Source: a virus
DNA length: 64,000 bases
Strand: one strand, 5' to 3'
Virus record (IMG/VR): IMGVR_UViG_3300032236_001304
Span: 1 to 64,000 of that record
Positions within the stretch are counted from its first letter, which is position 1; every line of letters begins with the position of its first letter. This document shows, piece after piece, positions 1 through 64,000 of this stretch. The notes under the pieces were generated by a model. It did no database searches. It was not told the DNA's origin and was given only the letters and a program-made list of their open reading frames with translations. Made by a program: the position numbers and the translations under genes.

Positions 1-44
1 AAAACGATATGATTGAAGGTCCTTTTGATGATTTTGAATTATAA
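1..44 (+). CDS. 3' end of a truncated gene
   Basis: An open frame enters from the left edge and ends at a TAA at 42-44. The visible C-terminal residues are NDMIEGPFDDFEL, which are acidic. Too little remains to assign a family. It runs in the same direction as every other gene in the window. Confidence 0.5.
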   Translation, partial: NDMIEGPFDDFEL

Positions 45-57
45 ACATAAATAGGAT

Positions 58-195
58 ATGACAATACAAACTGCAATAAAACTAATCAATAAAATGATTA
101 AGATAAGTAAAGTCAATATACACGTTAACCTACCTAATAAGGAAAAACAAAACTTTACTATCCATATAAACGAATTGAAACCGTCTAACGAATAA
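58..195 (+). CDS. Small protein of unknown function (45 aa)
   Basis: An ATG at 58 opens a 45-codon frame ending in TAA at 193-195, 13 bases after the previous stop. The product starts MTIQTAIKLINKMIKISKV and has alternating hydrophobic and basic residues, as in a small amphipathic helix, followed by a beta-like segment (FTIHINEL). I recognise no family. The close spacing to the preceding gene suggests one transcript. Codon use resembles that of neighbouring genes, but at this length the coding assignment is moderate only. Confidence 0.45.
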   Translation: MTIQTAIKLINKMIKISKVNIHVNLPNKEKQNFTIHINELKPSNE

Positions 196-510
196 CGGCG
201 TATCATTAAATAATTTCTAATAAAAGTGTTAATTATTAGACCGTATCAAATAACGGCTATAAGTGTATCATATATATAAATCCGTATATTGATATATAAA
301 GAGACAAAAATAAGGTAGTCCGTATAAGAATTAAACACTTTTACCCACTTTCCCCCACAATTCAACACACATAAGGGTTACAAAGAGAATAAAATAGATT
401 GAAAGCGTGTTAGAAAGCAGAATAGACCTTATCCATTCATTCAGTCGGACCGCAAAATTTTTTAGGGGATATTTTTACACACTTAGTTCACATAAAAAGA
501 TTCGATATAA
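196..510 (+). other. Non-coding gap upstream of the small RNA
   Basis: This stretch of about 315 bases has no supportable gene. It contains three CCGTAT hexamers (241, 282, 320) about 40 bases apart and a pyrimidine-rich tract near 341-359 (ACCCACTTTCCCCCAC). No long stem, tRNA or clear promoter is visible until the TTTG box at 511. It may hold control sites for the downstream promoter, but nothing specific can be shown. Confidence 0.4.
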
Positions 511-25197: not shown

Positions 25198-25918
25198 AAA
25201 GAAAAAAGACACCCGTTATTTTACGGAGCAAACAGAAGCAGCTATTATCGCATATAATAAATCCGATAATCAATTAGAAAGAAATAAATTATACGCTGAA
25301 CATATTCATTATTCATTTTATAAGTTAGCGGAGAACGTATTAAATACTTGGGGATTTACATACTTTGATGATGATAAAGAGGATATTAAACATGAAGTAA
25401 TATCATTCCTATTAGAAAAAATACATAAGTTTGAAGAGGGTAAGGGTAAAGCATTTAGTTATTTTACTATTGCAGCTCGTAACTATCTTATATTAAATAA
25501 TAATGCAAATTATAAAAGATTTAAAGCAACATCACAATTAAGTGTAATGCCAGATAGTTGGGATTTAGAAAATGATTTTAAACAAACGGCACACAATGAA
25601 GAATTTAAAACATTTAATGAACGAATGTTACAATATTGGGATTTAAATCTTAATAGAGAATTTACAAAGAAAAGAGATATTCAAATTGCAGATGCTGTTT
25701 TAGAATTATTTAGAAGAGCAGAGTATATTGAGTCATTTAATAAAAAATCGTTATACTTATTGGTGAGAGAAATGACAGGTTATAAAACACACTATATAAC
25801 TAAAGTTGTTTCTAAAATGAAAGAAACTCAAATGAAATTGTATTATCAATTTTTAGATGAGGGGGATATTACACAAGAATCTAAAGATCCATTTTGGAAA
25901 AGAGTAATTGTTAAATGA
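25190..25918 (+). CDS. 55: T4 gp55-like late sigma factor
   Basis: The segment YFTEQTEAAIIAYNKSDNQ...RNKLYAEHIHYSFYKLAENVLNT and DIKHEVISFLLEKIHKFEEGKGKAFSYF, followed by TIAARNYLI, corresponds to region 2 of sigma-70-type factors as found in the gp55 family of T4-like phages, which binds RNA polymerase core and recognises the late promoter. The 242-residue length is somewhat longer than T4 gp55. The C-terminal third is helical and lacks a full sigma region 4. This is the best candidate reader of the ATATTTATA motif found upstream of virion genes. The stop overlaps the carbamoyltransferase start. Confidence 0.82.
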   Translation: MGRKKKDTRYFTEQTEAAIIAYNKSDNQLERNKLYAEHIHYSFYKLAENVLNTWGFTYFDDDKEDIKHEVISFLLEKIHKFEEGKGKAFSYFTIAARNYLILNNNANYKRFKATSQLSVMPDSWDLENDFKQTAHNEEFKTFNERMLQYWDLNLNREFTKKRDIQIADAVLELFRRAEYIESFNKKSLYLLVREMTGYKTHYITKVVSKMKETQMKLYYQFLDEGDITQESKDPFWKRVIVK

Positions 25919-36914: not shown

Positions 36915-39900
36915 ATGGGATATTTAGAAAATTTGTATTCAAAAAATATGACGGGTGGTAACTACATTCCGTTTAATTCATTAGATATTTTTAATGAAAC
37001 TATTAGTAGTGGAACTAGTGGTAATAGTGGTGGATATACACCTGCAGTCAAATCACCCGGAAACGATTTAAAAATATTTCTTACAAATACAAGTCAGTAT
37101 AAAGGACAAATGACCTTTAATGTTCAAAATCAGAACTATAATGAAGGTACATCGATTGCAATTGATTCAAACACAATTAATGATAGTTTATTAATTAAAC
37201 CAATTGTAAATGATGGATATACATTAAAAAATTATTTTCAATTTGTAAAAGGTTCTAATGGTAAGATTCTGTTTAATACTTACAATGGTAGAAATGAATT
37301 ACAAGGAACTAAGCAATTAGAGTTACCCGATACACTTGATTTGGGATTTGATTTGGATGTAACACCTAAAATAGTTACAAAAACAACAGCTACTAAAATA
37401 CAATCTGTTTTTTTAACTACTAATTATAATAATTCTACATTAAATAATGAATTAGAAGTAACTATTGGTTCAAATGATTTATCATCACCAAAAAAATTAA
37501 AAATAGGTGATTCGGTAGATATTTCAAATATTAACAATACATCATCCGATTTAAATATTTCGGTTAGTGGATTATCATCGTTTAATTTAAAAAATATTAG
37601 ATGGCAATATGCTAATAAATTTAGTAGTAATAGTGTATTTGATATAAATGATTTTAATATATTAACAGGTGATACAACCGCGGTAATAAAAAATACAATA
37701 TTCAATTCTAATATTGTATTATTAATAGAAGTAGTTCCTAATACTGCAAATTATCCTACACTAACATTAGATAAAAATACAATAACTACTAATATTGCGG
37801 AAAGTGTTTTTGCTAATAAGAGTGATTATTCAATTAATGTTGATTGTAAAATAACAAAAGCTGATTCGGTAAAAATTAAAACGCCATATAGAGAATTTAC
37901 ACAAACTGTAAGTAATGGTATTTTTTTAGATTTACAAAATGACTTTAAAAATAATGAAGGACAGTTTAAAGTATTATTGACACCATATTCAAATTTATAT
38001 GGTGATGGAATTACACAATCAATATTAATAACAATTGGTAAAGTATTTGATACTCCAATTATAGATAAAATAGATTATCCAACAAATGTAACAATACCTG
38101 TTTATAGTTTTGGTGATACTAATTTTACAATACTTTTTGAAAGTACGTTAGCTAATAAAGTATTAATATATCATACAAAAGAAGATGATGTAAATTTATT
38201 TGGCAAATTTAACGCAAATGATAAAATAATATTAAACTATAATTCTATTAAAGCATTTAATACAAATGCAACCTTAGATTTATTAATAGTTCCATATAAT
38301 GGAAACATTAAAGGTGAAATAGAAAGAATTAGTATTTCATTTGATGATCCTGGATTTTATGTTTCTACACAAAATTTAAAAGATGAATTATTTAATGCAA
38401 TTGCATCACAATTAAAACTTAATTTAAATAAATCAAGTTATTTAAATCATTTAACATCATTTGATGTAGATGATAAGCAAATTATTATTTCAAATTGGGA
38501 TACTGATACTAATACCTTTACTAAATTTAAAACCGATGAATTAGGTAATCAAATTCCCGATGGTCAAATAAGTAAAACTATTGTATTAAAATTATATGAA
38601 CCATTACCAACGAATATTAATAAAAATGATACTCTTTGGATTTCTGAATTAATGGCATTACCAATATTACAATCGGTTGTAATTAGTGGTAATAATGAAG
38701 ATAATTGTATTCCATTAAGAGCTGCTAATTTTAATATTGAAGTTGATTTTGTTAAAGGACAATCTACCGGATTTGAGTCATATGATAGTTTAATATTAAG
38801 TGGTTCTACTACATCTCAACAATTAATAGACAAATATTTAACTGAAAATTTTATTGATGTTAAAGGTATTAATATTAAGTATGCAAGTGGTTCTACTCCT
38901 ACATTTGAAAATTTTGTAAAGTATAGTAGTGCAGTTGAAAGATTAGCAAACTTTAGATATAAAAAAGAATTGGCTGAATGGTATGATGATAAAATCAATA
39001 CATTATCAGATGTAGCTACATCAACTACTACTGCATTAAATTTAGATATTCAAAATTATATTACTAAAAAAACAAATTTAGTAACTGGATTTGATGGTTG
39101 GGAAACATATCTAACACAAAGTGTATTTACGGGTTCTTTTAATAATAATATAGATGTATATAATAATTACTATACATTGGCAAGTGAATATGATAGAACT
39201 AACAATAATGCTTTAAAAAACAATTTACCATTACATATTATTGATGATAATAATAATTTAGATTATGTATTATTCTTAGATATGGTTGGTAATTATTTTG
39301 ATATCTTGTGGGCATATATTAAAGGTATAAGTGACCAACGTAAAATATCAGAACAAAAGAGTGATGGTATAAGTGATGATTTGTTATATCAATATTTAAA
39401 ATCATTTGGATGGGATGCTAAAAATTTAAATTCTAATAAACAACTTTGGGATTATACATTTGGTTATAATAATGAAGGTGTTACTGGTTCATTTACATCT
39501 GATGTTCATTTGGGTGAAAATAATACATTAATTACACCTGAAGCAGCTAATTCACAAATTTGGAGAAGAATTGCAAATAACTTACCTTATTTATTAAAAC
39601 ATAAAGGTAGTATTAGAGGTATTAATGCATTACTTACTTGTTATGGTATACCGGCATCTAATATTTCTATTATGGAGTTCGGTGGCCCTAATATACAAAC
39701 CGTAGAAGATTCACCTAAATTTATATACGATAGTTTAACACATAATTTAGTATTTGATAATGTAAGTGCTAGTTTAAATATTCCATTCAACGGAACACCT
39801 AAACCACAATCAATTGAGTTTAAATTTAAACCAAATGATTTTGAATCATATACATTTATAACAGGTAGTAATTTTAAAATAGGAATTGTAGCGAATAATT

Positions 39901-41699
39901 CAGGCGATGTAATTGGTAAAAAATATGGTTATTTAAAAATAAACAATCAATTATTTGATAATATATCATATCCGTTTTACGATGGTAATTATCATAGTAT
40001 ATTAATTAACAAAAGTGGTAGTTCAATTACTACATATGTTAAAACAAATGATAAAGACAGAATTATACATAGTGCTGAGTGGAATGCTACTATTGTAGAA
40101 AGTGATTACGAAAATACAACTACATTATCATTCACAGGATTTAAAGGTCATTTAGAAGAGTTTAGATTATGGAATACTAACTTAAGTGAGAGTGTATTTG
40201 ATAATCACGTAATAATGCCTGAGGCGATAAATGGTAATGATATTTATGGTTCTACAAATGATTTATTATTAAGATTAGATTTTGAAAGACCACAGAGTTT
40301 ATTTACTACTAGTTCAATTAATAATGTAGCACCTAATTTAAACTATATAGATTCAGTAGAAACTATTGGTTTTGCAAGTGCATCTAATTATCCATGGAAT
40401 TATGAAGTATTAGAAAGACAAGTATCTTTAACAATTCCTAATAGTGGAGCAAGTAGATATTACACTAATAAAGTAAGATTAGAATCACAACAATTAGTAG
40501 GTAATTTATCTCCAACAAAAAGAGCAACTAAAAAAGCATTTGAAACATCTACAAAAGATTCTAATAGAGTAGGTTTATTTTTCTCACCTAATAAAGATTT
40601 GGATTTAGATATTGCAAAATCATTGGGTGGTGAATCATTTGATGATTTTATCGGTGACCCTCAATATGAATATGGATATACAACTTATCCTGAATTAGAT
40701 ACTATACGAAACTATTATTTTGAAAGAGTAGGTGAACGAAACTTATATGAGTTTATTCGTTTAATTAAATTCTATGATAAATCATTATTTGTTAATTTAA
40801 AAGAAATGTTGCCAGTTAGAGCAAATGCTACAACAGGTCTTTTAATAGCACCACATTTATTAGAAAGAAATAAAGTTAAAATAAATAGACCCAAAGTTGA
40901 AGCAGAGAGTTTAGAGGGTATTGTAAAAGAAACTCAAATTACAGATTTAGTTGGTAATTATAATGTATTAGATAGTGAATTAGATTTAAGAGATACATTA
41001 AATAATATAAGTGCAATTAATGAAGATTTAGATGCGGAAATAAATGCAACTGATACCTACAATTTTGCTGCAGAAGATTTAACATATGAAGTTACAATTG
41101 ATAATGATTTGGGAAATGTAGCTAGTGCAGAATGGGAAACGTATGATGGAACAATTGATTATAATAGATATGCTGGAACGTTAACAACTGAATTTGAATT
41201 ACTTGGTTCTGGGCAAGTTGTTGGTATGGGATTATATGATGATTATGGATTTAATACTTATTTTACAAACGGATATGGAAAATATCATTATGAAGAAAAT
41301 GGTTCATTTAAATCTAAAGGTGTAAGAGGATTTTTAGTAACTAGAAAACATACTTATTTATATCCAAGTGCAAGTATTAATGGTATTGTATCTACGGTGG
41401 CGACTTCATCTTTTTCACAAGATTTAATTATACAAGATTTTAGTTCTAGTTTAGGATTACAAGGAGATCCTAATATAATTAGTATCGTTACAGCAAGTGG
41501 ATATTTACCATCTCATCATATTTATAAAGGTGAAAAACACACTGGTATGCAGAATTTGTTTTACAATGGTTCTAAACAAACAAAATATACTACAATAGAC
41601 GGTAAAGATGCAGTTGAAACATTTGTAACTAATCCAACTACATTACGAGTTACTAAACAAGGTAGAAGTAATAACGAACCAATCTTAGAAGTTGATTAA
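36915..41699 (+). CDS. Giant baseplate/tail protein with LamG-like domain (1594 aa)
   Basis: The largest protein in the window. The N-terminal ~580 residues consist of repeated beta-rich segments. NLPYLLKHKGSIRGINALL and CYGIPASNISIMEFGG (about 888-925) form a motif conserved in large tail/baseplate proteins of T4-like phages (YLLKxKGTxRxxxALxxxYGIP). Residues about 953-1092 are LamG/concanavalin-like (QSIEFKFKPNDF, GNYHSILINKSGSSITTYV, GHLEEFRLWNTNLSE), a fold that binds carbohydrates. The C-terminus (about 1250-1420) is helical with YFERVGERNLYEFIRLIKF. It probably corresponds in position to the T4 gp7-gp10 baseplate periphery, which is inference. Confidence 0.6.
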   Translation: MGYLENLYSKNMTGGNYIPFNSLDIFNETISSGTSGNSGGYTPAVKSPGNDLKIFLTNTSQYKGQMTFNVQNQNYNEGTSIAIDSNTINDSLLIKPIVNDGYTLKNYFQFVKGSNGKILFNTYNGRNELQGTKQLELPDTLDLGFDLDVTPKIVTKTTATKIQSVFLTTNYNNSTLNNELEVTIGSNDLSSPKKLKIGDSVDISNINNTSSDLNISVSGLSSFNLKNIRWQYANKFSSNSVFDINDFNILTGDTTAVIKNTIFNSNIVLLIEVVPNTANYPTLTLDKNTITTNIAESVFANKSDYSINVDCKITKADSVKIKTPYREFTQTVSNGIFLDLQNDFKNNEGQFKVLLTPYSNLYGDGITQSILITIGKVFDTPIIDKIDYPTNVTIPVYSFGDTNFTILFESTLANKVLIYHTKEDDVNLFGKFNANDKIILNYNSIKAFNTNATLDLLIVPYNGNIKGEIERISISFDDPGFYVSTQNLKDELFNAIASQLKLNLNKSSYLNHLTSFDVDDKQIIISNWDTDTNTFTKFKTDELGNQIPDGQISKTIVLKLYEPLPTNINKNDTLWISELMALPILQSVVISGNNEDNCIPLRAANFNIEVDFVKGQSTGFESYDSLILSGSTTSQQLIDKYLTENFIDVKGINIKYASGSTPTFENFVKYSSAVERLANFRYKKELAEWYDDKINTLSDVATSTTTALNLDIQNYITKKTNLVTGFDGWETYLTQSVFTGSFNNNIDVYNNYYTLASEYDRTNNNALKNNLPLHIIDDNNNLDYVLFLDMVGNYFDILWAYIKGISDQRKISEQKSDGISDDLLYQYLKSFGWDAKNLNSNKQLWDYTFGYNNEGVTGSFTSDVHLGENNTLITPEAANSQIWRRIANNLPYLLKHKGSIRGINALLTCYGIPASNISIMEFGGPNIQTVEDSPKFIYDSLTHNLVFDNVSASLNIPFNGTPKPQSIEFKFKPNDFESYTFITGSNFKIGIVANNSGDVIGKKYGYLKINNQLFDNISYPFYDGNYHSILINKSGSSITTYVKTNDKDRIIHSAEWNATIVESDYENTTTLSFTGFKGHLEEFRLWNTNLSESVFDNHVIMPEAINGNDIYGSTNDLLLRLDFERPQSLFTTSSINNVAPNLNYIDSVETIGFASASNYPWNYEVLERQVSLTIPNSGASRYYTNKVRLESQQLVGNLSPTKRATKKAFETSTKDSNRVGLFFSPNKDLDLDIAKSLGGESFDDFIGDPQYEYGYTTYPELDTIRNYYFERVGERNLYEFIRLIKFYDKSLFVNLKEMLPVRANATTGLLIAPHLLERNKVKINRPKVEAESLEGIVKETQITDLVGNYNVLDSELDLRDTLNNISAINEDLDAEINATDTYNFAAEDLTYEVTIDNDLGNVASAEWETYDGTIDYNRYAGTLTTEFELLGSGQVVGMGLYDDYGFNTYFTNGYGKYHYEENGSFKSKGVRGFLVTRKHTYLYPSASINGIVSTVATSSFSQDLIIQDFSSSLGLQGDPNIISIVTASGYLPSHHIYKGEKHTGMQNLFYNGSKQTKYTTIDGKDAVETFVTNPTTLRVTKQGRSNNEPILEVD

Positions 41700-47164: not shown

Positions 47165-50100
47165 ATGAATAAATTAAAAAGAATTTATCACATTGCAGAC
47201 ATTCACATTAGAAATCTAAAAAGACACCAGGAATATAGAGAGGTATTTGATAGATTATTTAATGACATAAAAAACAGGGGAACTGAAGATTCCCTTATTT
47301 ATTTAGCGGGGGATTTGGCTCACGCAAAATTAGAAATGTCACCGGAGCTTCTTAACGAAATAAATTATTTTCTTAAGAAATGTTGTGAATTATGTCCTAC
47401 CATATTAATCGCTGGTAATCATGATTGTAATTTGAATAATGCTGGTAGATTAGATGTATTGAGTCCAATTGTAGAAGCATTAGATTTACCTAATTTAACT
47501 TATTTAAGAAATACTCAAAGTTATACCTATGGGGGTGTAAGATTTGATACTTTCTCTATTTTTGATGAGAAAGAAAATTGGGTATTTGAACCATTAACAT
47601 CTGATACTAAAAATATTGCATTGTTTCATGGACCTGTATTAGATGCAACTACTGATGTTGGTTATACAATTTCATCTCGTCATTTTACATCAGAAATGTT
47701 TGATGGATATGATTTAGCCCTATTAGGTGATATCCATAAAAGACAAACTATGATTTCACCTAAAGGTTGTAAAGTAGTTTATCCAGGTTCTTTGATTCAA
47801 CAAAATCATGGTGAAGCATTAGATAAACATGGTTATGCTATTTGGAATATGGATGATTTATCAGTTGAATATGTAGATGTTCAAAATGATTATGGTTATT
47901 ATACTTTACATGTTGAGAATGGTATAGTACCTGATGTAACTGATATGCCTCAGAAACCTCGTCTTAGAGTGTTTGTATCTAAAACCGATGCAGCAGATAT
48001 TAAGAGAGTTACTACTGAAATTAAAAAGAAATATAAAGTAGATGAGTTTACTATTACTCGTACCGACACTTTAGCTCGTTTAAGGACGGGTAATAAGGAT
48101 GGTAAGTTGAATGTAGGTAATGTGAACGATCCTCAATACCAAGCTGGTCTTATTAAAGATTACTTAGGTAGAAACTATATGTTGGATGATGAAACATTGG
48201 GTAAGATTGAGGACTTGAACAATAAACTAAACAAAAGATTAAATGATGATGATTTAGTTAAGAACATAGCTTGGAAACCAATTCGTTTTGAGTTTGATAA
48301 TATGTTCAGTTATGGAGAAGATAATATCGTTAACTTTGAAAATATGAAAGGGTTAATGGGTGTGTTCGCTCCAAACGCAAGTGGTAAATCTTCTTTGTTT
48401 GATGCATTATCATTTTGTATATTTGATAAGAGTAGTAGAGCTTTCAAAGCAGCTAACATTCTAAACAATCGTAAAACATCATTTAATTGTAAGTTAGAGT
48501 TCGATATCAATGATGAAAGATTTTTTATTGAAAGAACCGCTAAAACAAGTAAGAAAGGTGATTCAGTTAAATGTGATGTAAACTTTTGGAAAATAGAAGG
48601 TGATGAAATTGTAAACCTAAATGGTGATGAACGTAGAGGAACTGATAAAGTAATTGAATCTTATTTAGGTAAATATGAAGATTTTGTTTTAACTGCATTA
48701 TCTTTACAAGGAAACAATTCTCTATTCATTGATAAATCTCAATCAGAAAGAAAGGATTTATTAGCTCAATTTATGGGTATTAATGTCTTTGATAAGTTAT
48801 ATGACTTAGCAAGTGAAGATATTAAAGAAGTTCAGGTTTTATTAAGAAATTTTAAGAGAACAGATTTTACATCAGAGTTGGCAACAGCAGAAAGTAAATT
48901 AGAATTATTAAAAGATGATTACGAAGAATTTGAAATTGAGAAAGAACGTTATGAAGATAGACAAGATGAATTAAATGAACAAATAACTAATTTATCAGCT
49001 CAATTAGTTCCTATGGATGGTAATTTAGATATTAATGATTTGAATACCAAAAAACAACAATTACAAAATAGTTTAGAGGAATTAAAAGAATTAAGTATTA
49101 CCAAAGCTACAACTCTTAGTGATATTGTTGCTAAGGTAGTAGAACTAAAAAAATTATTAGCTGAAAAAGAAAATCCTAATGGTGTTAATATAGAAGTTGT
49201 ATATTCTAATTATCAAAAAGAACAAAAAGCATTAGTTGAAGCAACTAAAGTATATGATAATGCAAAATTACATTTAAGTTTAGCAAAAGAAAAGATTAAA
49301 CATTTGGATAATCATGAATATGACCCTAATTGTAAATTTTGTTGTGATAATACTTTTGTAAAAGATGCAATGAATGCAAAAAACACATTACCTCAAATAC
49401 AAGAGATAGTAAATCAAGCTATAATAGATTGTACTGGTATTCAACAAACATTGGATACTATGGAAGGTATAGAGGAACAATACAAAGAAGTAACGGAATT
49501 AAAAGCTAAAATACACAAAGGAGTACAAGCACATACAAATAAAACTTTAGAATTTAGTGGTATGGTTACTCAAAAAGAGTTATACGAAGCACAATTAACA
49601 GCAGTTGATTTAGATATTGAAAGATACTATGCCAACGAAGCAAACATTCAAAACAATGATTCTTTAGAGGAACAAATTGATATTAAGAAACAAGAATTAG
49701 CTGGAGTTAGTAAAGACCTAAGAGAGATAGCAACTAGATTATTAGAGTTAAATGGGCAGATAGTTCAAACACAATCTTACATTACATCAGTTACCGATAA
49801 GATGGCTGAAGCAAAAGATTTAGAAGAAAAGTTCCAAATCTACGAATACTATTTAGATGCAGTTAAAAGAGATGGTGTTTCATATGAATTGATTGCAAAG
49901 GCTCTACCAGTGATAGAAGGTGAGGTAAATAACATCTTACAACAAATTGTAGAGTTCGGTATCGTTTTTGATATGAGTGGTAAGAATGTGAACGCTAGGA
50001 TTGTTTATGAGGATCAGCATTGGCCATTAGAAATGTGTAGTGGTATGGAAAAGTTCGTTAGTGGATTGGCAATTAGAGTTGCACTTATTAATGTATGTAA

Positions 50101-50311
50101 CTTACCTCGTCCAAACTTTTTAGTAATTGATGAAGGATTTGGAACATTAGATAGTGATAACTTACAATCTATCTTTATGATGTTTGATTATCTTAAAACA
50201 CAATTTGATTTCATTAATATCATTTCTCACTTGGATGCAATGCGAGATGTAGTAGATACATTAGTTGAAATTAAAAAAATAGATGGGTTCTCACAAATAC
50301 AATATAAATAA
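47165..50311 (+). CDS. Fused Mre11-Rad50-type nuclease/ATPase (gp47-gp46 in one protein)
   Basis: Residues 1-~330 are a calcineurin-like phosphoesterase with D12-x-H14, G49-D50, G84-N-H-D87, H155 and G188-D-I-H191, the Mre11/SbcD/gp47 metal site. Residues ~370-1048 are a Rad50/SbcC/gp46-type ATPase: Walker A APNASGKS (402-409), long coiled coils on both sides of a zinc-hook CxxC (C723-x-x-C726), the signature CSGMEKFVSG and Walker B NFLVIDEGFGTLD (about 984-997). Bacterial SbcC/SbcD and T4 gp46/gp47 are separate polypeptides; here a single open frame joins them with the nuclease first. The complex processes DNA ends for recombination-dependent replication. Confidence 0.9.
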   Translation: MNKLKRIYHIADIHIRNLKRHQEYREVFDRLFNDIKNRGTEDSLIYLAGDLAHAKLEMSPELLNEINYFLKKCCELCPTILIAGNHDCNLNNAGRLDVLSPIVEALDLPNLTYLRNTQSYTYGGVRFDTFSIFDEKENWVFEPLTSDTKNIALFHGPVLDATTDVGYTISSRHFTSEMFDGYDLALLGDIHKRQTMISPKGCKVVYPGSLIQQNHGEALDKHGYAIWNMDDLSVEYVDVQNDYGYYTLHVENGIVPDVTDMPQKPRLRVFVSKTDAADIKRVTTEIKKKYKVDEFTITRTDTLARLRTGNKDGKLNVGNVNDPQYQAGLIKDYLGRNYMLDDETLGKIEDLNNKLNKRLNDDDLVKNIAWKPIRFEFDNMFSYGEDNIVNFENMKGLMGVFAPNASGKSSLFDALSFCIFDKSSRAFKAANILNNRKTSFNCKLEFDINDERFFIERTAKTSKKGDSVKCDVNFWKIEGDEIVNLNGDERRGTDKVIESYLGKYEDFVLTALSLQGNNSLFIDKSQSERKDLLAQFMGINVFDKLYDLASEDIKEVQVLLRNFKRTDFTSELATAESKLELLKDDYEEFEIEKERYEDRQDELNEQITNLSAQLVPMDGNLDINDLNTKKQQLQNSLEELKELSITKATTLSDIVAKVVELKKLLAEKENPNGVNIEVVYSNYQKEQKALVEATKVYDNAKLHLSLAKEKIKHLDNHEYDPNCKFCCDNTFVKDAMNAKNTLPQIQEIVNQAIIDCTGIQQTLDTMEGIEEQYKEVTELKAKIHKGVQAHTNKTLEFSGMVTQKELYEAQLTAVDLDIERYYANEANIQNNDSLEEQIDIKKQELAGVSKDLREIATRLLELNGQIVQTQSYITSVTDKMAEAKDLEEKFQIYEYYLDAVKRDGVSYELIAKALPVIEGEVNNILQQIVEFGIVFDMSGKNVNARIVYEDQHWPLEMCSGMEKFVSGLAIRVALINVCNLPRPNFLVIDEGFGTLDSDNLQSIFMMFDYLKTQFDFINIISHLDAMRDVVDTLVEIKKIDGFSQIQYK

Positions 50312-57601: not shown

Positions 57602-58357
57602 ATGATAACAAATAAAGATTACATTAAAGAATTTATTTCTAATAATCAAGAAATAGATGATTACGGAGACCAGGTTTTATTAAGTGTTCCATATCGATGG
57701 TCACACGGTGCTACAGATGACCATTTAGGTGACGGTTTAATTATATATTCACTTATTCAATATATGAGAGCAAAGGTATGTGTTTGTTTAGGAAGTGGTG
57801 GCGGATTTATACCAAGAATTATGACACAGGCTAGATATGATTTATGGAATCAAAATATATTTGAAGGTAATGGTGATTTTAATCATGGTGATATTGGATG
57901 TACTTATATTGTAGATGCTGCAAATGGAATCGGTGGTAATGTAAATTGGTTAAAAGAAGAATCATTCTTTAGAAGAACATTTTGGCCTAGAATTATAAAC
58001 GATACAACCGCAAATGCATTTCATAATTACTTTGTATTGAATGATATTAAGATAGATTATTTACATATTGATGCAGGGCATAGTTATGAAAATGTAAAAG
58101 AAGATTTTGATTTATACTCTCAATTGATGAGTGAAAATGGAATCATTTCTATACATGATACTGACCCTAATTATGCAGATAAATACATAGTGACAAATGA
58201 AGTTAAAGATAGGGGTGATTTTGATGATTGGAATGGACCAATTCAATTAGCAAAAGAAATAGATACTACAAAATGGGAGGTATTTAATTTATTTAATTTT
58301 GGTATATTAAAAAATAAACCAGCATCAACTGGATTAACATTGGTAAGAAAAAAATGA
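57602..58357 (+). CDS. Class I SAM methyltransferase (Methyltransf_24-like, 251 aa)
   Basis: VCVCLGSGGGFIPRIM (about 59-74) is the SAM-binding glycine loop. IDYLHIDAGHSYENVKEDFDLY (about 154-175) with NGIISIHDTD is a pattern typical of the Methyltransf_24 family, which includes O-methyltransferases acting on sugars. It sits among glycan-modifying genes, starting directly after the SGNH gene and overlapping the next glycosyltransferase by 4 bases, and may methylate a glycan. Acceptor unknown. Confidence 0.68.
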   Translation: MITNKDYIKEFISNNQEIDDYGDQVLLSVPYRWSHGATDDHLGDGLIIYSLIQYMRAKVCVCLGSGGGFIPRIMTQARYDLWNQNIFEGNGDFNHGDIGCTYIVDAANGIGGNVNWLKEESFFRRTFWPRIINDTTANAFHNYFVLNDIKIDYLHIDAGHSYENVKEDFDLYSQLMSENGIISIHDTDPNYADKYIVTNEVKDRGDFDDWNGPIQLAKEIDTTKWEVFNLFNFGILKNKPASTGLTLVRKK

Positions 58358-59202
58358 TAAGATTAGTTACAGTAACAGGTAGTAGAACAAACACATTAAA
58401 ACATATGTTAAATCACTATAAAAATATGGTGGATGAAATGTATGTTGTTGTATATGAATGGGATGGATTTAGTACATATGATGAAGTAGAAAAAATTGTA
58501 AAAGAATTTCCAACTGCACAAATTATAAAAAGAACAACTAAAGAAAAGTTTAATTGGGAATATGTAACTTACTTATATAATCAAACTAAAATGTTATTTC
58601 CTAACGATTGGTGGATTATTTCGGATGATGATGAATTTCAAGTGTATTCAAAAGTAATTTCAGATATTATAAAAATATGTGATGAAAGTGGATATGAATT
58701 TGTAACCGGCGGATTTGTAGATAGAATAGGTAAGAACGGTACATTTGCTGAAATAAAAGAAGATTCTAATCTATGGGAGTTATTTCCAATGGTGGGATTT
58801 TTTAGATATCCTTTAAGTGGAGCATGTCCTAATAAAGTAACGATGTGTAAAGGATATATAGAACTTACTCCTGGTCAACATTATGCAAAAATAGATGGAC
58901 AAACCACTTGGAAATGGCAAGGATGGAATCATCCACTAAGATTTCCAACAACTCAAAACTTTACACAAGTACATCATTTTAAATGGGATAGTACAGTCTT
59001 AGATAGATTACAGGATGTTGCAAATGTTGGGCAAGTATATTCTTACTCAAAAGAATATCAAGAAATGTACGATGCTATAAAACTAAATAATTTTAAAATT
59101 GATATTTATGATGAGAGATTTTTAATGGAAGAAGTTAAAACACCAACATATTGGTCATACAAAAATTGGAACAAACTTTCTAAAATAATACTCTCCATTT
59201 AA
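58354..59202 (+). CDS. GT-A glycosyltransferase-like protein (282 aa)
   Basis: The start LVTVTGSRTNTLKHMLNHYKNMVDEMYVVVYEW is a GT-A type fold strand and helix. WWIISDDDEFQVYS (about 87-100) is the metal-binding DxD region. HHFKWDSTVLDRL (about 208-220) is a typical late motif of GT2/GT92-like enzymes with a metal-binding His. The C-terminal residues are SKIILSI. It closes the operon that begins at 55010; a host-type promoter follows one base after its stop. Confidence 0.62.
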   Translation: MIRLVTVTGSRTNTLKHMLNHYKNMVDEMYVVVYEWDGFSTYDEVEKIVKEFPTAQIIKRTTKEKFNWEYVTYLYNQTKMLFPNDWWIISDDDEFQVYSKVISDIIKICDESGYEFVTGGFVDRIGKNGTFAEIKEDSNLWELFPMVGFFRYPLSGACPNKVTMCKGYIELTPGQHYAKIDGQTTWKWQGWNHPLRFPTTQNFTQVHHFKWDSTVLDRLQDVANVGQVYSYSKEYQEMYDAIKLNNFKIDIYDERFLMEEVKTPTYWSYKNWNKLSKIILSI

Positions 59203-59237: not shown

Positions 59238-60719
59238 ATGGTTAATCATAAATTAGCAATCATTGTACCATATAGAGATAGACGTGATCATTTAGATACG
59301 TTTATTCCACATATGAAGGAATTTCTTAAAGATAAAGGAATTGCTTACAAAATATTTGTCATTGAACAATCTGATGATAAACCTTTTAATTATGGAAAAC
59401 TTTGTAATGCAGCATTTAGTTTAATAAAAGATGATTTTGATTATTTTTGTTTTCATGATGTAGACCAATTACCAATTAATGATAGTTGTGATTATTCATA
59501 TAAAGAATATCCAGTACATTTAGCAACTAGAGCTTCTGCACATAATGATAGATTACCTTACTTACAATATTTTGGTGGTGCAGTTATTTTTACTAAAGAA
59601 GATTTTGAAAAAATTAATGGTTATTCAAATGAATACTATGGATGGGGATATGGTGATATAGATTTAATATTTAGATGTTCTCAAAAAGAATTAGATGTAG
59701 ATTATGTGTATGCATATCCAAAAGTAAATAGTGAATATGAAATTGGTGAAATGGAAGAAACGGATTCATTAAAATCAGAAAAAATACATTCAATAAAATT
59801 TGATGGAGAAACATTTTTAGAAATTAAACCAAACAAATTTTTAAAAAGTTTAACATCAGATAGTTTTACCGTTTCAATGTGGATTAAACCAGAAGATAAT
59901 TTATTGAAACAACAATACATTTTAAGTTGGCCGGGATTTAATTCAGGTGTATCATTAAATTTAGATAATCAATTAATTTTCAATTTTTGGAACTCACAAA
60001 AAATTTATTATTACAATTATAAAAAAATTAAACCAAACGAATGGAATCATTTAATTGTTAATGTAAACTTCGATGATAATAAATTAAAAATGTGGTTAAA
60101 TGGAATTGAATTACAACCAAACAAAGATGCATCGGTTAATTTTAAAACACCATTATTTGATTATTCGGAATCAAACATTTATATAGGATGTGGTTCAATT
60201 AATAAAGAATTTTATACAGGTGAATTAAGTAATCTTTATATGTTTGATTATACTTTAACACCAGGTGAAATAGAAAAATTATATTTGAATGGATTATATT
60301 TAAACAAATTTTTACAAACAAAATTTGAACCTGTGGTAAGATATGAATTTGATAACTTTTATAAACAATATTTTATAGATAAAAGCAAAACCCATAATCA
60401 CGCTAAAGTATTTGGAAAAGCAGGAACAGATTATTTAAAATTAGTATCAGAAGTAACAATAGAAAAAGTATCAGAAATTCCAATACCACATAGAGTAGCA
60501 GGTGAATATCAATCATTAGAGCACGATGGTGATTTAGATATCAAAGATAAGTTTAATGGATTTGATCCTGATACATTAGAAAATAAAAAGATTTTCTTTG
60601 ATGATATATTTTCAAAAAGATTTTCTACGGATAAAATAGGATTGAGTTCTCTTAAATTTAAATTAATTGAAAATGAAGAATTTGATAATAAAACAAATTG
60701 GATTAAAGTAATATTATAA
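59238..60719 (+). CDS. GT7 galactosyltransferase interrupted by LamG domain, copy 1 (493 aa)
   Basis: I use the ATG at 59238 (MVNHKLAIIVPYRDRR), since the frame upstream of it lies over the promoter. Residues 1-~165 are the N-terminal half of a beta-1,4-galactosyltransferase (GT7): VPYRDR (10-15), FHDVDQLP (D74, D76, metal) and NGYSNEYYGWGYGDID (127-142, degenerate acceptor/metal motif). About 178-345 is a LamG-like beta-sandwich (TVSMWIKPED, GVSLNLDNQLIF, NEWNHLIVNVNF, LKMWLNGIEL, FYTGELSNLYMFDYTLTPGEI). About 413-493 resembles the C-terminal end of GT7, with RVAGEYQSLEHDG and a degenerate GLSSLKFKL. First of three such proteins. Confidence 0.7.
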   Translation: MVNHKLAIIVPYRDRRDHLDTFIPHMKEFLKDKGIAYKIFVIEQSDDKPFNYGKLCNAAFSLIKDDFDYFCFHDVDQLPINDSCDYSYKEYPVHLATRASAHNDRLPYLQYFGGAVIFTKEDFEKINGYSNEYYGWGYGDIDLIFRCSQKELDVDYVYAYPKVNSEYEIGEMEETDSLKSEKIHSIKFDGETFLEIKPNKFLKSLTSDSFTVSMWIKPEDNLLKQQYILSWPGFNSGVSLNLDNQLIFNFWNSQKIYYYNYKKIKPNEWNHLIVNVNFDDNKLKMWLNGIELQPNKDASVNFKTPLFDYSESNIYIGCGSINKEFYTGELSNLYMFDYTLTPGEIEKLYLNGLYLNKFLQTKFEPVVRYEFDNFYKQYFIDKSKTHNHAKVFGKAGTDYLKLVSEVTIEKVSEIPIPHRVAGEYQSLEHDGDLDIKDKFNGFDPDTLENKKIFFDDIFSKRFSTDKIGLSSLKFKLIENEEFDNKTNWIKVIL

Positions 60720-60729
60720 AATAAAGTAT

Positions 60730-60996
60730 ATGGCAAAAGAAGTAAAAACCGATAACTTAAGTATCGAAGAAAGAACAGTTTTGGCTTTAGAAAGACAAGC
60801 AAAAGCATATGAAAGAATGGCTGGTGCACAAGAAGACTTAGCTGATTGGTTTCATGGATTCGATAGAAAGACTTGGACTGAAAAGTTAGAGTGGTACTTA
60901 CATGAGTTCTATCAAATTATGAAAACTAAGCAAGTAGGTGGTTCTATATCTAGACCTGATAGAGGTTATGAGAGAGAAGCAGATGAGCAAAAATAA
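60730..60996 (+). CDS. Small helical protein of unknown function (88 aa)
   Basis: The product is charged and helical (SIEERTVLALERQAKAYERMAG) with a Trp-containing centre (ADWFHGFDRKTWTEKLEWYL). No family is recognised. It lies between copies 1 and 2 of the GT7-LamG genes, and its last 14 bases overlap the start of copy 2. It could be a partner of these enzymes. Confidence 0.55.
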   Translation: MAKEVKTDNLSIEERTVLALERQAKAYERMAGAQEDLADWFHGFDRKTWTEKLEWYLHEFYQIMKTKQVGGSISRPDRGYEREADEQK

Positions 60997-62404
60997 AAAA
61001 CTAGCAGTTGTAGTTCCTTATAGAGATAGGAAATCACATTTAGATATTTTCATAGAATATATGGAAACCTATTTAAATGAATATGATTATTCTATTTACA
61101 TCATCGAACAAAATGATGACAGACCTTTTAATAGAGGTAAACTTCTTAACATTGGTGCAAAGGTAGCAATGAAAGAGGGATGTGATTATTTTGCGTTTCA
61201 TGATGTTGATATGTTACCACAACCTGGTGTTGATTATTCCTTTGCAGATGTTCCTACACATTTATCTACCGAATTAGATGGTGATGTTCCATTTTTAGAT
61301 TACTTTGGTGGAGTTACATTATTTAACGTACAGGATTTTAAAATCATTAACGGATATTCAAATGAGTATTGGGGTTGGGGATTTGAAGATGATGACCTAT
61401 TATATAGATGTATTGGTAAAGGATTATCATTAGAAACTAAAAAGATAGGATTACCAGAAAAAGAATTTTTAATTAACTATTTTAAATTTAATGGTTCATC
61501 ATCTTACATTAGAATACCATACAAAAATATGAGTTCGGTATTTAGTGGTGATTTTACTATTTCAATGAAAATAAAACCGGAAGATTGTAAAATAAATCAA
61601 AACGTAGAGTTTGATGAATATTATGCAGTATCAATTCCAGGTAGAAATACAGGTATATCATACACATCATTTAAAAGATATAAATCAGAAATTTGGGATA
61701 AGGAAGGCAATTCAAACTCAATTCAATCAGATATATTAGGAGAAGTTTGGTCACATTTAGTTATGGTTAAAGTTGATGATAAATTATCATTTTACCTTAA
61801 TGGTGAATTAATTGAAGAAAAGGAAATTGGATTGGAAATATTTAATTACACTACCGATTATTTTTATATTGGTGTAGGTAATCCAAATGAAGAAATAAAT
61901 AAATTTTATTTTAAAGGATTAATTTCAGAATTTGCAGTTTGGAACATTGGATTAGATGATAACAATGTAAAGGAAATATATGAAAACTCGTATTATAAAT
62001 CAATTCTAAATGATTATAGAAGATATAATAAATCTAAATATTTAAAATGTTATTATGATTTTAAAAACTTTAGAGATAATGTAATTCAGGATTTGAGTGG
62101 TAATAAAAATAATGGTTTTATTTATAACTGTGAAGATGGTTATTTGATTAATAAATTTGAAACTGAAATTGTAGTTCCAACAAGAAGAGATGGAAAATTC
62201 AAAACACTTAAACATAAATCAAATTCAACAATTGGTAATAGTTGGGTTCATTATGAAACAAGAAAAAACCAAAAGAGATTTTATAATGAAATGAAAGGAA
62301 ACATTGTAGATTTGAATATAGATGGGTTAAATAGTTGTAGATATAAATTAATAGATGAAGAACAACTTACTAACAAAACTAAATTAATTAAAGTAGAATT
62401 ATAA
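60983..62404 (+). CDS. GT7 galactosyltransferase interrupted by LamG domain, copy 2 (473 aa)
   Basis: The ATG at 60983 (MSKNKKLAVVVPYRDRK) is preferred over an in-frame start at 60938, which lies inside the previous gene. GT7 N-terminal part: VPYRDR (11-16), AFHDVDMLP (D74, D76) and NGYSNEYWGWGFEDDD (123-138), a complete motif. LamG-like part about 165-345: FTISMKIKPEDCK, TGISY, EVWSHLVMVKV, LSFYLNGELI, YFKGLISEFAVWN. GT7 C-terminal part about 396-473: VPTRRDGKFKTLKHKS and DGLNSCRYKLI (447-457), matching the DGLNSL.Y of the canonical enzyme. This copy has the best-conserved catalytic residues and is probably active. Target glycan unknown. Confidence 0.75.
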   Translation: MSKNKKLAVVVPYRDRKSHLDIFIEYMETYLNEYDYSIYIIEQNDDRPFNRGKLLNIGAKVAMKEGCDYFAFHDVDMLPQPGVDYSFADVPTHLSTELDGDVPFLDYFGGVTLFNVQDFKIINGYSNEYWGWGFEDDDLLYRCIGKGLSLETKKIGLPEKEFLINYFKFNGSSSYIRIPYKNMSSVFSGDFTISMKIKPEDCKINQNVEFDEYYAVSIPGRNTGISYTSFKRYKSEIWDKEGNSNSIQSDILGEVWSHLVMVKVDDKLSFYLNGELIEEKEIGLEIFNYTTDYFYIGVGNPNEEINKFYFKGLISEFAVWNIGLDDNNVKEIYENSYYKSILNDYRRYNKSKYLKCYYDFKNFRDNVIQDLSGNKNNGFIYNCEDGYLINKFETEIVVPTRRDGKFKTLKHKSNSTIGNSWVHYETRKNQKRFYNEMKGNIVDLNIDGLNSCRYKLIDEEQLTNKTKLIKVEL

Positions 62405-63852
62405 TGCACAAATTAGGAGTATGTGTACCATATAGAAATAGAGAAGCTCATTTAAAAGAGTTTTCACCAAGAGTTCATAAATTCTTAAAGGAGCAAGGTA
62501 TTGAACATAAAATTTATTTTGCACATCAATGTGATGATAAATTGTTCAATAGAGGTAAAATGAAAAACATTGCAGCAAAACACGCATTTGATGATGGGTG
62601 TGATTATATTGTATGGCACGATATAGATATGGTACCAGAAGATGAGTCTTGTGATTATAGCTTCAATCCTGAGAACCCTAAACATTTAGCTGTAAGAATA
62701 TCTCAAACAGATTATAACCTCAAATATGAGGAGTATTTTGGTGGTGCAGTACTATTCACAAAAGAACAAGTTGAAGCAACTAATGGTTATTCAAATGATT
62801 ATTGGGATTGGGGTATGGAAGATGATGATTTATTTTGGAGATGTGTATTGACAGGAAACGCAGAACAACATTATTTATCAGAACAATTTAAAAATCAAAA
62901 ATATGGTTATTTCAATGGTAAAGATAGTTTTGTAAAAATTGAACCTAGTAGGAGTATTAGAAATCTTTGTTCACGTTCTCATTCAGTTTCAATGTTAGTT
63001 AGAGCACATCAACAAGAAGAAAAAGTTCCTATTTATTTAATTGGTGATGAAGATAGAAGATTTTGTGAATATCCAATACTTCGTAGACCAGGACATGATT
63101 GGGGTATATCTTATAACAATAGTAGAGCATTTACTACAATGTTATGGAACAACGAAAGAAACTTTTTATACCTTTGGGCAAAAAGATACGAACAACAATG
63201 GACATGGGTTACATTGACGGTAGATGATGATAATAAAGAAATTTCACTTTATATCAATGGAAAAAAGAGCGATGCCAGATTTGGTACAGGATTATCCTCT
63301 CCGTTGATTTACGAGGGGTTTTTAAAGAGGTATGGTACTGAAGCTTACTATTTAGGTACAACAACTTCGGTAGGTGAAAATGAGGTTAATAAGTGGTTTA
63401 AAGGTGATATTGCAAAAGTAATGATGTGGGATAGATGTTTAGACGAAGATGAAATTTTGGATTTTCCTAACGATGCAGTATTAGAATATGATTTTGAAAA
63501 CATAACGGATAATATTTTAGAAGATTTGAGTGGTAATGAAAATAATGGTATAATTCATAATGTTGAAATTAAAGAAGAAGATATTTTGAAAGTTCACAAT
63601 ACTATCTTACCTTTCCGTAGAGATGGTAAGTTTGAATGTTTACCACATCAAACGGAAGGATTGATTAGTGTAGGTGGTGTAGATAAATGGGCAAAGGGTG
63701 AAACAACTGCAAGAAATGAAAGAAGATATATTTTAGAAATGCAGCAGGGTAAGTATAATTGGAAAAATGATGGAATGAATAGTTTAGAATATGAACTAAT
63801 ATCAGTAGATGATATTGGTAACAATTCTGTAATAATAAATTGTAAAGCATAA
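62404..63852 (+). CDS. GT7 galactosyltransferase interrupted by LamG domain, copy 3 (482 aa)
   Basis: The start overlaps the copy 2 stop by one base (TAATG). GT7 N-terminal part: VPYRNR (8-13), WHDIDMVP (D73, D75), NGYSNDYWDWGMEDDD (128-143). LamG-like part about 167-385: HSVSMLVRAHQQ, WTWVTLTVDDDNKEISLYINGKKSD, WFKGDIAKVMMWDRCLDEDEI, NDAVLEYDFEN, DLSGNENNGIIHNV. GT7 C-terminal part about 400-482: LPFRRDGKFECLPHQ, NERRYILEM and DGMNSLEYELI (456-466). It differs from copies 1 and 2 throughout, so the triplication is old. It may differ in donor or acceptor specificity. Confidence 0.73.
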   Translation: MHKLGVCVPYRNREAHLKEFSPRVHKFLKEQGIEHKIYFAHQCDDKLFNRGKMKNIAAKHAFDDGCDYIVWHDIDMVPEDESCDYSFNPENPKHLAVRISQTDYNLKYEEYFGGAVLFTKEQVEATNGYSNDYWDWGMEDDDLFWRCVLTGNAEQHYLSEQFKNQKYGYFNGKDSFVKIEPSRSIRNLCSRSHSVSMLVRAHQQEEKVPIYLIGDEDRRFCEYPILRRPGHDWGISYNNSRAFTTMLWNNERNFLYLWAKRYEQQWTWVTLTVDDDNKEISLYINGKKSDARFGTGLSSPLIYEGFLKRYGTEAYYLGTTTSVGENEVNKWFKGDIAKVMMWDRCLDEDEILDFPNDAVLEYDFENITDNILEDLSGNENNGIIHNVEIKEEDILKVHNTILPFRRDGKFECLPHQTEGLISVGGVDKWAKGETTARNERRYILEMQQGKYNWKNDGMNSLEYELISVDDIGNNSVIINCKA

Positions 63853-64000
63853 TGGGACAGTACGAAAAATTTGAAAAGGTAAGAAGACAACTAAATGATG
63901 TAGGTGCAGGATTTTGTTTAGCAAAATGGATGCAGGTAACATTACATTTACATATTGGACATAACCATAGTTGTCACCATCCACAAACACATAAAATATC
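63852..64000 (+). CDS. Probable radical-SAM (twitch-domain) protein, truncated at window end
   Basis: Only the first ~49 residues are in the window. FCLAKWMQVTLHLHIGHNH followed by SCHHPQTHKI matches, from memory, the start of a phage/bacterial radical-SAM family with a twitch-type extra domain, in which CHHP.pHKIP precedes the CxxxCxxC cluster. The cluster itself would lie beyond the window, so the assignment needs the next bases. The ATG overlaps the preceding stop (TAATGG), so it belongs to the same operon. A radical-SAM enzyme would be one possible client of the phage IscU/IscA. Confidence 0.5.
   Translation, partial: MGQYEKFEKVRRQLNDVGAGFCLAKWMQVTLHLHIGHNHSCHHPQTHKI

What the first reader, a model, noticed from the sequence alone, without database searches (positions are those of the whole stretch)
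59238..63852. Three GT7 galactosyltransferases each split by an inserted LamG-like domain
In all three proteins the N-terminal half has the GT7 motifs (VPYRxR, D-x-D, NGYSN.Y..WG..D.D) and the C-terminal ~80 residues have the remaining GT7 signature (RRDGKF..L.H ... DG[LM]NS..Y.L, clear in copies 2 and 3, degenerate in copy 1). A 150-200-residue LamG-like beta-sandwich lies between the two. In canonical beta-1,4-galactosyltransferases these halves are contiguous. This looks like a nested insertion that places a glycan-binding domain inside a glycosyltransferase, kept in three divergent tandem copies. The system may read and extend a specific glycan on the host surface or the virion.
Basis: partly seen in the sequence, partly recalled or inferred. 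Interest (0 to 1): 0.78.

Follow-up and report, generated by a model that had tools for sequence, protein, structure and literature searches.

The report
Phage sugar-transferases with a nested lectin-like domain
A family of aquatic bacterial viruses carries tandem galactosyltransferase-like enzymes whose catalytic fold is interrupted by a lectin-like domain, apparently inserted once and kept ever since in a conserved gene cluster.

Summary
All three proteins have GT7N, GT7C and Laminin_G_3 domains above Pfam cut-offs, followed by the missing C-terminal GT7 piece. AlphaFold models of copies 3 and 1 (pLDDT 93.6, 93.5) superpose on beta4GalT1 from first to last residue, skipping the insert (Z about 28). 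A tail profile built from phage proteins finds the tail directly after the GT7 core in uninterrupted bacterial and viral GT7s. The architecture recurs in 297 distinct viral ORFs but gave no tblastn match in 50,697 phage records. A tree built without the insert gives one origin (94/90).

The nested GT7s sit in a conserved module: methyltransferase, GT2-like, two or three GT7-LamG genes in fixed order, radical SAM, solo LamG. Copies 2 and 3 belong to groups with intact active sites, copy 1 to a degenerate one.

Best guess: the LamG domain holds the acceptor glycan beside the active site of UDP-Gal-using transferases, with copy 1 an altered or non-catalytic partner. Glycan binding and activity are untested.

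The parts
59238..60719 (+). copy 1: GT7-LamG protein, 493 aa; group with degenerate active site (beta4GalT1-equivalent R228->Y, E317->G, D319->I, tail D->I)
59238..59687 (+). copy 1 GT7 core, aa 1-150
59688..60479 (+). copy 1 insert with Laminin_G_3 fold, aa 151-414
60480..60716 (+). copy 1 C-terminal GT7 piece, aa 415-493
60968..62404 (+). copy 2: GT7-LamG protein, 478 aa; intact active-site set; not modelled
60968..61420 (+). copy 2 GT7 core, aa 1-151
61421..62170 (+). copy 2 insert with Laminin_G_3 match, aa 152-401
62171..62401 (+). copy 2 C-terminal GT7 piece (RRDGKFKTLKH ... DGLNS), aa 402-478
62404..63852 (+). copy 3: GT7-LamG protein, 482 aa; intact active-site set
62404..62853 (+). 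copy 3 GT7 core, aa 1-150
62854..63603 (+). copy 3 insert with Laminin_G_3 fold, aa 151-400
63604..63849 (+). copy 3 C-terminal GT7 piece (RRDGKFECLPH ... DGMNS), aa 401-482
57602..58357 (+). Methyltransf_24 gene, conserved upstream member of the module
58354..59202 (+). GT2-like gene (Glyco_tranf_2_4, E 2.6e-4, under cut-off), conserved upstream member of the module
63852..64000 (+). start of the N_Twi radical SAM gene (continues to record base 65249; a solo LamG gene, under Pfam's cut-off, follows at record 65249-66052; both run beyond the window)

Best explanation
Shown (by sequence and predicted structure): each protein is one GT-A fold of family GT7 whose chain leaves the fold just after the W-G-x-E-D-D-D helix, forms a LamG/pentraxin-type beta-sandwich, and returns to supply the last part of GT7 with the presumed metal-ligand histidine and the C-terminal helix and strands (copy 2 by sequence only). 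The tree favours a single insertion followed by duplication into paralogues 1, 2 and 3, kept in that order in a conserved phage gene module. Inferred: copies 2 and 3 are inverting, metal-dependent transferases using UDP-Gal. The LamG domain, threaded in at the entry to the loop that closes over the acceptor in beta4GalT1, binds the acceptor glycan (or glycoprotein) and presents it to the active site, giving specificity or processivity. Copy 1 is a non-catalytic or altered partner. The module builds and decorates a phage-specified surface glycan (host O-antigen or virion) in the infected cell.
For: Structure: models of copy 3 (pLDDT 93.6, pTM 0.88) and copy 1 (93.5, 0.87) align over 1..482 and 1..493 to beta4GalT1 (Z 28.5, 215 residues, 1.9 A; Z 28.4, 213 residues, 1.8 A). 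The inserts align to PAPP-A LG, 4dqa (a putative carbohydrate-binding protein) and pentraxins (listed Z 17-22). Tail: the phage-trained tail model follows the core at -9 to +13 aa in the 78 uninterrupted ORFs classed as contiguous (51 bacterial, 27 viral; lenient E<=0.5; class defined as within 60 aa; 18 further uninterrupted ORFs had a 60-120-aa tail it did not recognise). The tail-only profile's first PDB matches are beta4GalT1, but weakly (best E 0.07; 12 of 17 matches at E<=10). One origin: support 94/90, 95% of 200 bootstrap trees. Active site: E317-equivalent E in 128 of 129 (group 2) and 128 of 128 (group 3); H347-equivalent H in 128 of 129 and 128 of 128; Y289-equivalent Y in 128 of 129 and 126 of 128. 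LamG is inherited with its GT7 (Mantel r 0.77, 0 of 999 permutations as high) and diverges faster (mean identity 0.235 against 0.44, 101 sequences), as a specificity part might. Module: MT24 then GT2 upstream in 96 of 121, rSAM then solo LamG downstream in 93 of 113. Precedent: the DUF1975 domain inserted in the GT-B enzyme SdgB binds the acceptor before and after glycosylation and dimerises (PMC8561734, passages).
Against: No ligand or activity evidence exists; LamG/pentraxin folds also mediate protein-protein contacts (recalled). Faster LamG divergence could be relaxed constraint. The acceptor-side position is argued from beta4GalT1 numbering, partly recalled; no distance was measured on the models. 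The tail-only PDB search by itself is not significant, and five unrelated viral-glycoprotein entries score in the same range. A cassette with sugar-nucleotide genes fits host-surface or virion modification equally.
Confidence: 0.5

Rival explanations
1. The LamG insert is an assembly or docking domain, not a lectin: the tandem GT7s, and the solo LamG protein, form a hetero-oligomeric complex through LamG-LamG contacts; acceptor choice lies in the GT7 pocket alone.
For: Pentraxins, among the best structural matches, oligomerise (recalled). DUF1975 inserts form dimers, trimers or heterodimers in SdgB, TarM and GtfA/B (PMC8561734, passages). A solo LamG gene follows the radical SAM gene in 93 of 113 cases. 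Copy 1's group is degenerate yet kept.
Against: Nothing excludes both roles; the fast divergence of LamG among copies would be unusual for a shared interface.
Confidence: 0.25
2. The LamG insert is a passenger: a neutral domain tolerated at a permissive surface loop, with no role in catalysis.
For: The insert diverges faster than the GT7 part; GT7 proteins without it are found in bacteria and other phages.
Against: The nested form is one side of a single branch, so the tree shows no loss of the insert (15 nested rows). It is tied to a module with its own solo LamG.
Confidence: 0.1
3. The module glycosylates virion proteins (fibres, capsid) in the cytoplasm rather than the host's O-antigen; LamG domains recognise LamG-bearing or glycosylated phage proteins. 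(This concerns the target and can be true together with the best explanation.)
For: The record carries a baseplate wedge gene at 31443 and, at 36915, a 1594-aa protein with a homologue in Immutovirus a few genes before its annotated tail fibre genes; that protein has a weak LamG match at 39804-40190 (E 0.0048, under cut-off). No signal peptide was seen by eye in the GT7 or solo LamG frames (no predictor run).
Against: Epimerases, a dTDP-sugar isomerase, DegT and TPP enzymes downstream resemble O-antigen clusters; pelagimyophage authors read similar islands as host O-chain modification (PMC7029224, passages).
Confidence: 0.35

Closest known systems
Vertebrate beta-1,4-galactosyltransferase 1 (and beta4GalT7; CAZy GT7)
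   Same: GT-A fold, core motifs and C-terminal DGLNS region; best superpositions cover 213-216 residues of beta4GalT1 at 1.7-2.0 A
   Different: No domain between the two halves; in lactose synthase the acceptor modifier alpha-lactalbumin is a separate protein (entry titles; its function recalled)
Uninterrupted GT7 proteins of bacteria (incl. Pelagibacteraceae) and of other uncultured phages
   Same: Same core and same tail; the highest identity of copy 2's GT7 part to any tree row, 51%, is to an uninterrupted viral protein
   Different: Core and tail contiguous; homologues of the MT24, GT2 and radical SAM genes were seen in 0 of 32 of their viral loci (up to 6 kb flanks)
SdgB/SdgA, TarM, GtfA/B (GT-B enzymes with inserted DUF1975)
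   Same: A beta-stranded domain inserted into the acceptor-binding half of a glycosyltransferase; paralogues interact; acceptor platform and oligomerisation (PMC8561734, passages)
   Different: GT-B, not GT-A/GT7; DUF1975 is not LamG; bacterial, not phage
Polypeptide GalNAc-transferases with ricin-type lectin domain
   Same: GT-A enzyme with a lectin domain in the same chain (recalled)
   Different: Lectin is appended at the C-terminus, not nested (recalled)
Pelagimyophage/cyanophage hypervariable regions with LPS-type glycosyltransferases
   Same: Large T4-like aquatic phages with sugar genes beside tail-fibre genes; concanavalin A domains in structural proteins (PMC7029224, passages)
   Different: GT8 named as commonest there; 'galactosyl' and 'laminin' do not occur in that main text

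Membership tests
GT7 (Glyco_transf_7N/7C) | PF13733 and PF02709 above gathering score | tested here: met
   all three copies
GT7 (Glyco_transf_7N/7C) | beta4GalT GT-A fold including C-terminal part | tested here: met
   copies 3 and 1 by predicted model; copy 2 not modelled, by sequence only
GT7 (Glyco_transf_7N/7C) | DxD metal motif and metal-ligand His (D252/D254/H347 equivalents; roles recalled) | tested here: met
   present in all three window copies; in copy 1's group at large H in only 29 of 49, D254 equivalent in 43 of 49
GT7 (Glyco_transf_7N/7C) | acidic cluster E317-D318-D319 (role recalled) | tested here: inconclusive
   met in copies 2 and 3; not met in copy 1 (G-D-I)
GT7 (Glyco_transf_7N/7C) | galactosyl transfer from UDP-Gal | not testable with these tools
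   Y289 equivalent is Y in 192 of 205 nested representatives, suggestive only
LamG / concanavalin A-like (PF13385) | profile match above cut-off and LamG/pentraxin sandwich | tested here: met
   three copies by profile; copies 3 and 1 by model (listed Z 17-22)
LamG / concanavalin A-like (PF13385) | glycan or calcium binding | not testable with these tools
   no ligand data
DUF1975-inserted GTs (SdgB/TarM/GtfA) | GT-B fold | tested here: not met
   best matches of the catalytic part are GT-A beta4GalT structures; a works-like comparison only
T4-like (Gp23) myophage genome | Gp23 major capsid protein | tested here: inconclusive
   22 of 30 chosen records with GT7 have it; the window's own 88-kb record (possibly a fragment) does not, but is partly syntenic with Immutovirus, whose record annotates Gp20 and Gp23

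The most novel reading that the evidence does not exclude
A viral read-and-extend glycosylation machine: LamG domains nested at the acceptor loop act as built-in specificity switches (the job alpha-lactalbumin does in trans for beta4GalT1), copy 1 is a pseudo-glycosyltransferase that holds substrate or partners, and the solo LamG protein is a matching free modifier or the acceptor itself, so that the module writes a phage-defined glycan one recognised step at a time.
Probability: 0.25. Interest if true: 0.8.

Novelty: new variant of a known kind. Interest (0 to 1): 0.62.

Why it matters
Lectin domains in glycosyltransferases are better known as terminal add-ons (recalled). Here one is threaded into the catalytic fold just before the presumed metal-ligand histidine and the acceptor loop, apparently once, and then kept through duplication. 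Uninterrupted relatives in other phages give a natural before/after pair, so what an inserted lectin does to acceptor choice becomes testable. The family recurs in uncultured aquatic phage contigs yet had no match in the 50,697 phage records searched, so it would be missed by work on cultured phages.

Tried and rejected
Artefact, frameshift or gene fusion: rejected, since continuous ORFs of the same order recur. A complete GT7 ending before the LamG part: rejected. Independent repeated insertions: not favoured (one change, 94/90; one change, support 83, in the quick tree with 16 nested rows). Solo LamG genes as recent donors of the insert: in the LamG tree nested and solo forms separate (support 82, many long branches), so direction is unresolved. 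Pairwise alignment with near-free gaps, to place the junction against single uninterrupted proteins, scattered the gap and was not used. A scan with the window record's solo LamG as single query found one related locus; the LamG profile found 102 distinct solo ORFs in loci already held. GT2-like and SGNH-like neighbours remain weakly assigned. In the viral predicted-structure library the 50 listed matches cover at most 0.38 of the model by TM-score, and I recognised none as the whole nested architecture.

Literature: searches found no paper with a LamG-split GT7 (one search's single hit concerns an algal virus; listing and abstract start only); this covers only the held open-access library and those terms. 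Searches gave listings, from which PMC7029224, PMC7955280 and PMC8561734 were searched for passages, not read whole. One search listed nothing; one search listed one paper, not opened; two searches were seen as listings only.

Loci overlap on some contigs, so locus counts are not independent; distinct-sequence counts are. In one search, ORFs whose core match stopped short of model position 135 were dropped; 8 viral and 1 bacterial ORFs running off their locus were not classed; 3 viral ORFs had core and LamG but no detected tail; 13 bacterial and 5 viral ORFs had a 60-120-aa tail the profile did not recognise; 1 viral ORF ended within 60 aa. The classes 'nested' and 'contiguous' were defined by the core-tail distance. 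One long-branch nested row was left out of the careful tree. The 30 records were chosen, mostly long contigs.
Full report
What is in the sequence. The window is bases 1-64000 of an 88,442-base virus record, 23-34% G+C in 2-kb steps, with 60 of 67 ORFs of 100 aa or more on the + strand. The three ORFs are as described. Each has Glyco_transf_7N, Glyco_transf_7C and Laminin_G_3 above Pfam cut-offs in that order; the C-terminal 77-82 residues have no Pfam match of their own at E<=1.

Is the tail really the rest of GT7? (1) phmmer of copies 2 and 3 against the PDB aligns the core to beta4GalT1 and, far below significance, the phage D-G-[LM]-N-S segment to DGLNSLTYQVLDV at its C-terminus. (2) A profile of 49 phage tails alone gives 17 PDB sequences at E<=10: 12 are beta4GalT1, all at the same C-terminal place, and they take the first four ranks, best E 0.07; the other five are viral glycoprotein entries from E 0.11 on, interleaved with the lower beta4GalT1 rows. 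This is suggestive, not significant. (3) The tail HMM, trained only on phage sequences, recognises the tail directly after the core in uninterrupted GT7 proteins: 51 bacterial and 27 viral distinct ORFs, offset -9 to +13 residues (E<=0.5 allowed; class defined as within 60 aa); 13 bacterial and 5 viral ORFs had a tail of fitting length that it did not recognise (single bacterial E-values down to 1e-7). (4) AlphaFold models of copy 3 (69-sequence alignment) and copy 1 (67 sequences) superpose on beta4GalT1 from first to last residue: Z 28.5, 215 residues, 1.9 A and Z 28.4, 213 residues, 1.8 A. Copy 2 was not modelled. I rest the claim on (3) and (4).

Where the insert sits. Copy 3 residue n corresponds to bovine beta4GalT1 residue n+178 around the UDP and acid-cluster motifs (from the alignment; literature numbering and residue roles recalled; entry titles mention Arg228, Trp314, Cys342 and Met344 mutants). 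The core ends after the E-D-D-D helix and the chain returns just before the conserved H415, taken as H347. So the LamG domain is threaded in immediately before the metal-ligand and long-loop region. Nearness to the acceptor is inferred; no distance was measured.

How widespread, and how often it arose. Viral scans matched 227 stretches (80 loci kept), 74 loci and 9 loci for copies 3, 2 and 1. Among distinct ORFs with a complete core, 297 viral and 10 from genome contigs were nested; 27 viral and 51 bacterial were contiguous (other classes and biases under Tried and rejected). The 10 lie in seven MAG loci (L169-L174, L192); three (L169, L172, L174) carry MT24 and GT2 homologues and two of these also radical SAM and solo LamG, as on phage contigs. 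A tree on GT7 columns alone puts all nested rows on one side of one branch, support 94/90, in 95% of 200 bootstrap trees (15 nested, 19 viral and 29 bacterial uninterrupted rows). If the root lies among the uninterrupted rows, as their presence across bacterial phyla suggests, that is one insertion, then duplication.

Three paralogues. Assigned by best BLAST score, 306 nested sequences split 49/129/128 between copies 1, 2 and 3, window copies included. On 199 overlapping loci the order read 1-2-3 in 78 and 2-3 in 95; the rest were partial or variant. Each of 30 chosen records had 2-4 GT7C matches, and 22 of 30 had the T4-like Gp23 capsid protein. In groups 2 and 3 the core active-site positions are nearly constant; an exact 16-letter signature is kept by 70 of 129 and 105 of 128, with most differences at the R359 equivalent and a few other sites. 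In group 1 the R228 equivalent is Y in 43 of 49, D319 is L or I in 36 of 49, R359 is I in 48 of 49, the tail D is I in 27 and D in 10 of 49, E317 is E in 20 of 49 and H347 is H in 29 of 49. Copy 1's own E-to-G change is rare (1 of 205 representatives). All seven group-1 rows of the tree form one supported set (98/89; members listed in the rerun, 99/88). It is therefore a conserved, divergent partner whose activity is doubtful.

The donor. The residue matching Y289, whose Tyr-to-Leu change in beta4GalT1 admits UDP-GalNAc derivatives (PMC7955280, passage, printed there as Tyr298), is Y in 192 of 205 nested representatives. That predicts UDP-Gal.

The LamG part. Pairwise LamG identities track GT7 identities (Mantel r 0.77, 0 of 999 permutations as high), but LamG diverges faster (0.235 against 0.44 mean identity over 101 sequences). 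The best structural neighbours are PAPP-A LG, 4dqa and pentraxins; by sequence, sialidase N-terminal parts and pentraxins.

A module. Upstream of the first GT7, 96 of 121 distinct cases read Methyltransf_24 then GT2-like; downstream of copy 3, 93 of 113 read radical SAM then a solo LamG gene. The record's three radical SAM proteins match NF033640, twitch-domain radical SAM. Its own solo LamG scores under Pfam's cut-off (E 0.002). The 102 distinct solo LamG ORFs found with the nested-LamG profile are all under 330 aa and separate from the nested LamGs in a tree (support 82). Of 32 viral loci with uninterrupted GT7, none had the methyltransferase, GT2 or radical SAM homologue and one had a solo LamG, within flanks of up to 6 kb; of 162 nested viral loci 144, 146 and 152 had them. 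Further downstream lie epimerases, a dTDP-sugar isomerase, DegT, TPP enzymes and a 2OG oxygenase.

The phage. None of the three GT7 copies, nor one uninterrupted viral GT7, nor the first radical SAM protein had a tblastn match in 50,697 phage records (E limits 1e-5 for, 0.01), while the primase matched 522 records, so the search works. The record is partly syntenic with Flavobacterium phage immuto (genus Immutovirus): five window proteins and one beyond it match in order, a sixth window protein weakly. Between the primase and the gene matching at 87.5 kb there are about 40 kb here and about 5 kb in immuto. So the sugar cassette is extra relative to immuto. The Gp23 of one related record is nearest immuto, 72% DNA identity over 51% of the query. 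A Bacteroidota host is a lead, not shown.

Mechanism. The best precedent is SdgB, a GT-B enzyme with a domain inserted in its acceptor-binding half that holds the acceptor before and after reaction and also dimerises; GtfA/B and TarM use the same inserted domain to assemble (PMC8561734, passages). By analogy the nested LamG most likely presents the acceptor, possibly also assembling copies 1-3. This is inference. The docking rival is the main alternative.

Verdict. Function is open.

Noticed in passing
window 60730-60996: An 88-aa ORF between copies 1 and 2 has homologues in 42 of 162 nested viral loci; only a weak Pfam match (LcrR, E 0.0097, under cut-off).
   Followed up: partly
window 25915-27609: NodU/Nol-like carbamoyltransferase (PF02543, PF16861; phrog_1601), a further possible sugar-modifying gene well upstream of the cassette.
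   Followed up: no
window 47165-50311: One 1048-aa ORF matches both an SbcD-like (aa 2-340) and an SbcC-like (aa 349-1047) PHROG: an apparent SbcD-SbcC fusion.
   Followed up: no
L167:15928-17612, L168:459-1367 (record 78.9-83.4 kb): Three ORFs with closely similar starts (MKGI[IL]F[AIS]G[CD]SFTWG[QE]G), SGNH-hydrolase-like by eye, two of them adjacent; the one submitted had no Pfam match.
   Followed up: no
L168:1541-5503 (record 83.5-87.5 kb): 1320-aa protein with a cytidylyltransferase-like domain in its C-terminal part; an immuto protein in the like position is annotated NadR, but the two did not match by blastp at 1e-4.
   Followed up: partly
G013:C1:11594-11710, G011:C1:138656-138775: Divergent further GT7C matches in 384- and 410-aa frames far from the tandem cluster (the second under the cut-off).
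   Followed up: no
copy 3 residue 412 and equivalents: The position taken as the beta4GalT1 metal ligand Met344 is Cys in 121 of 128 copy-3-group sequences, against L 42 and S 31 of 129 in group 2 and S 30 of 49 in group 1.
   Followed up: no
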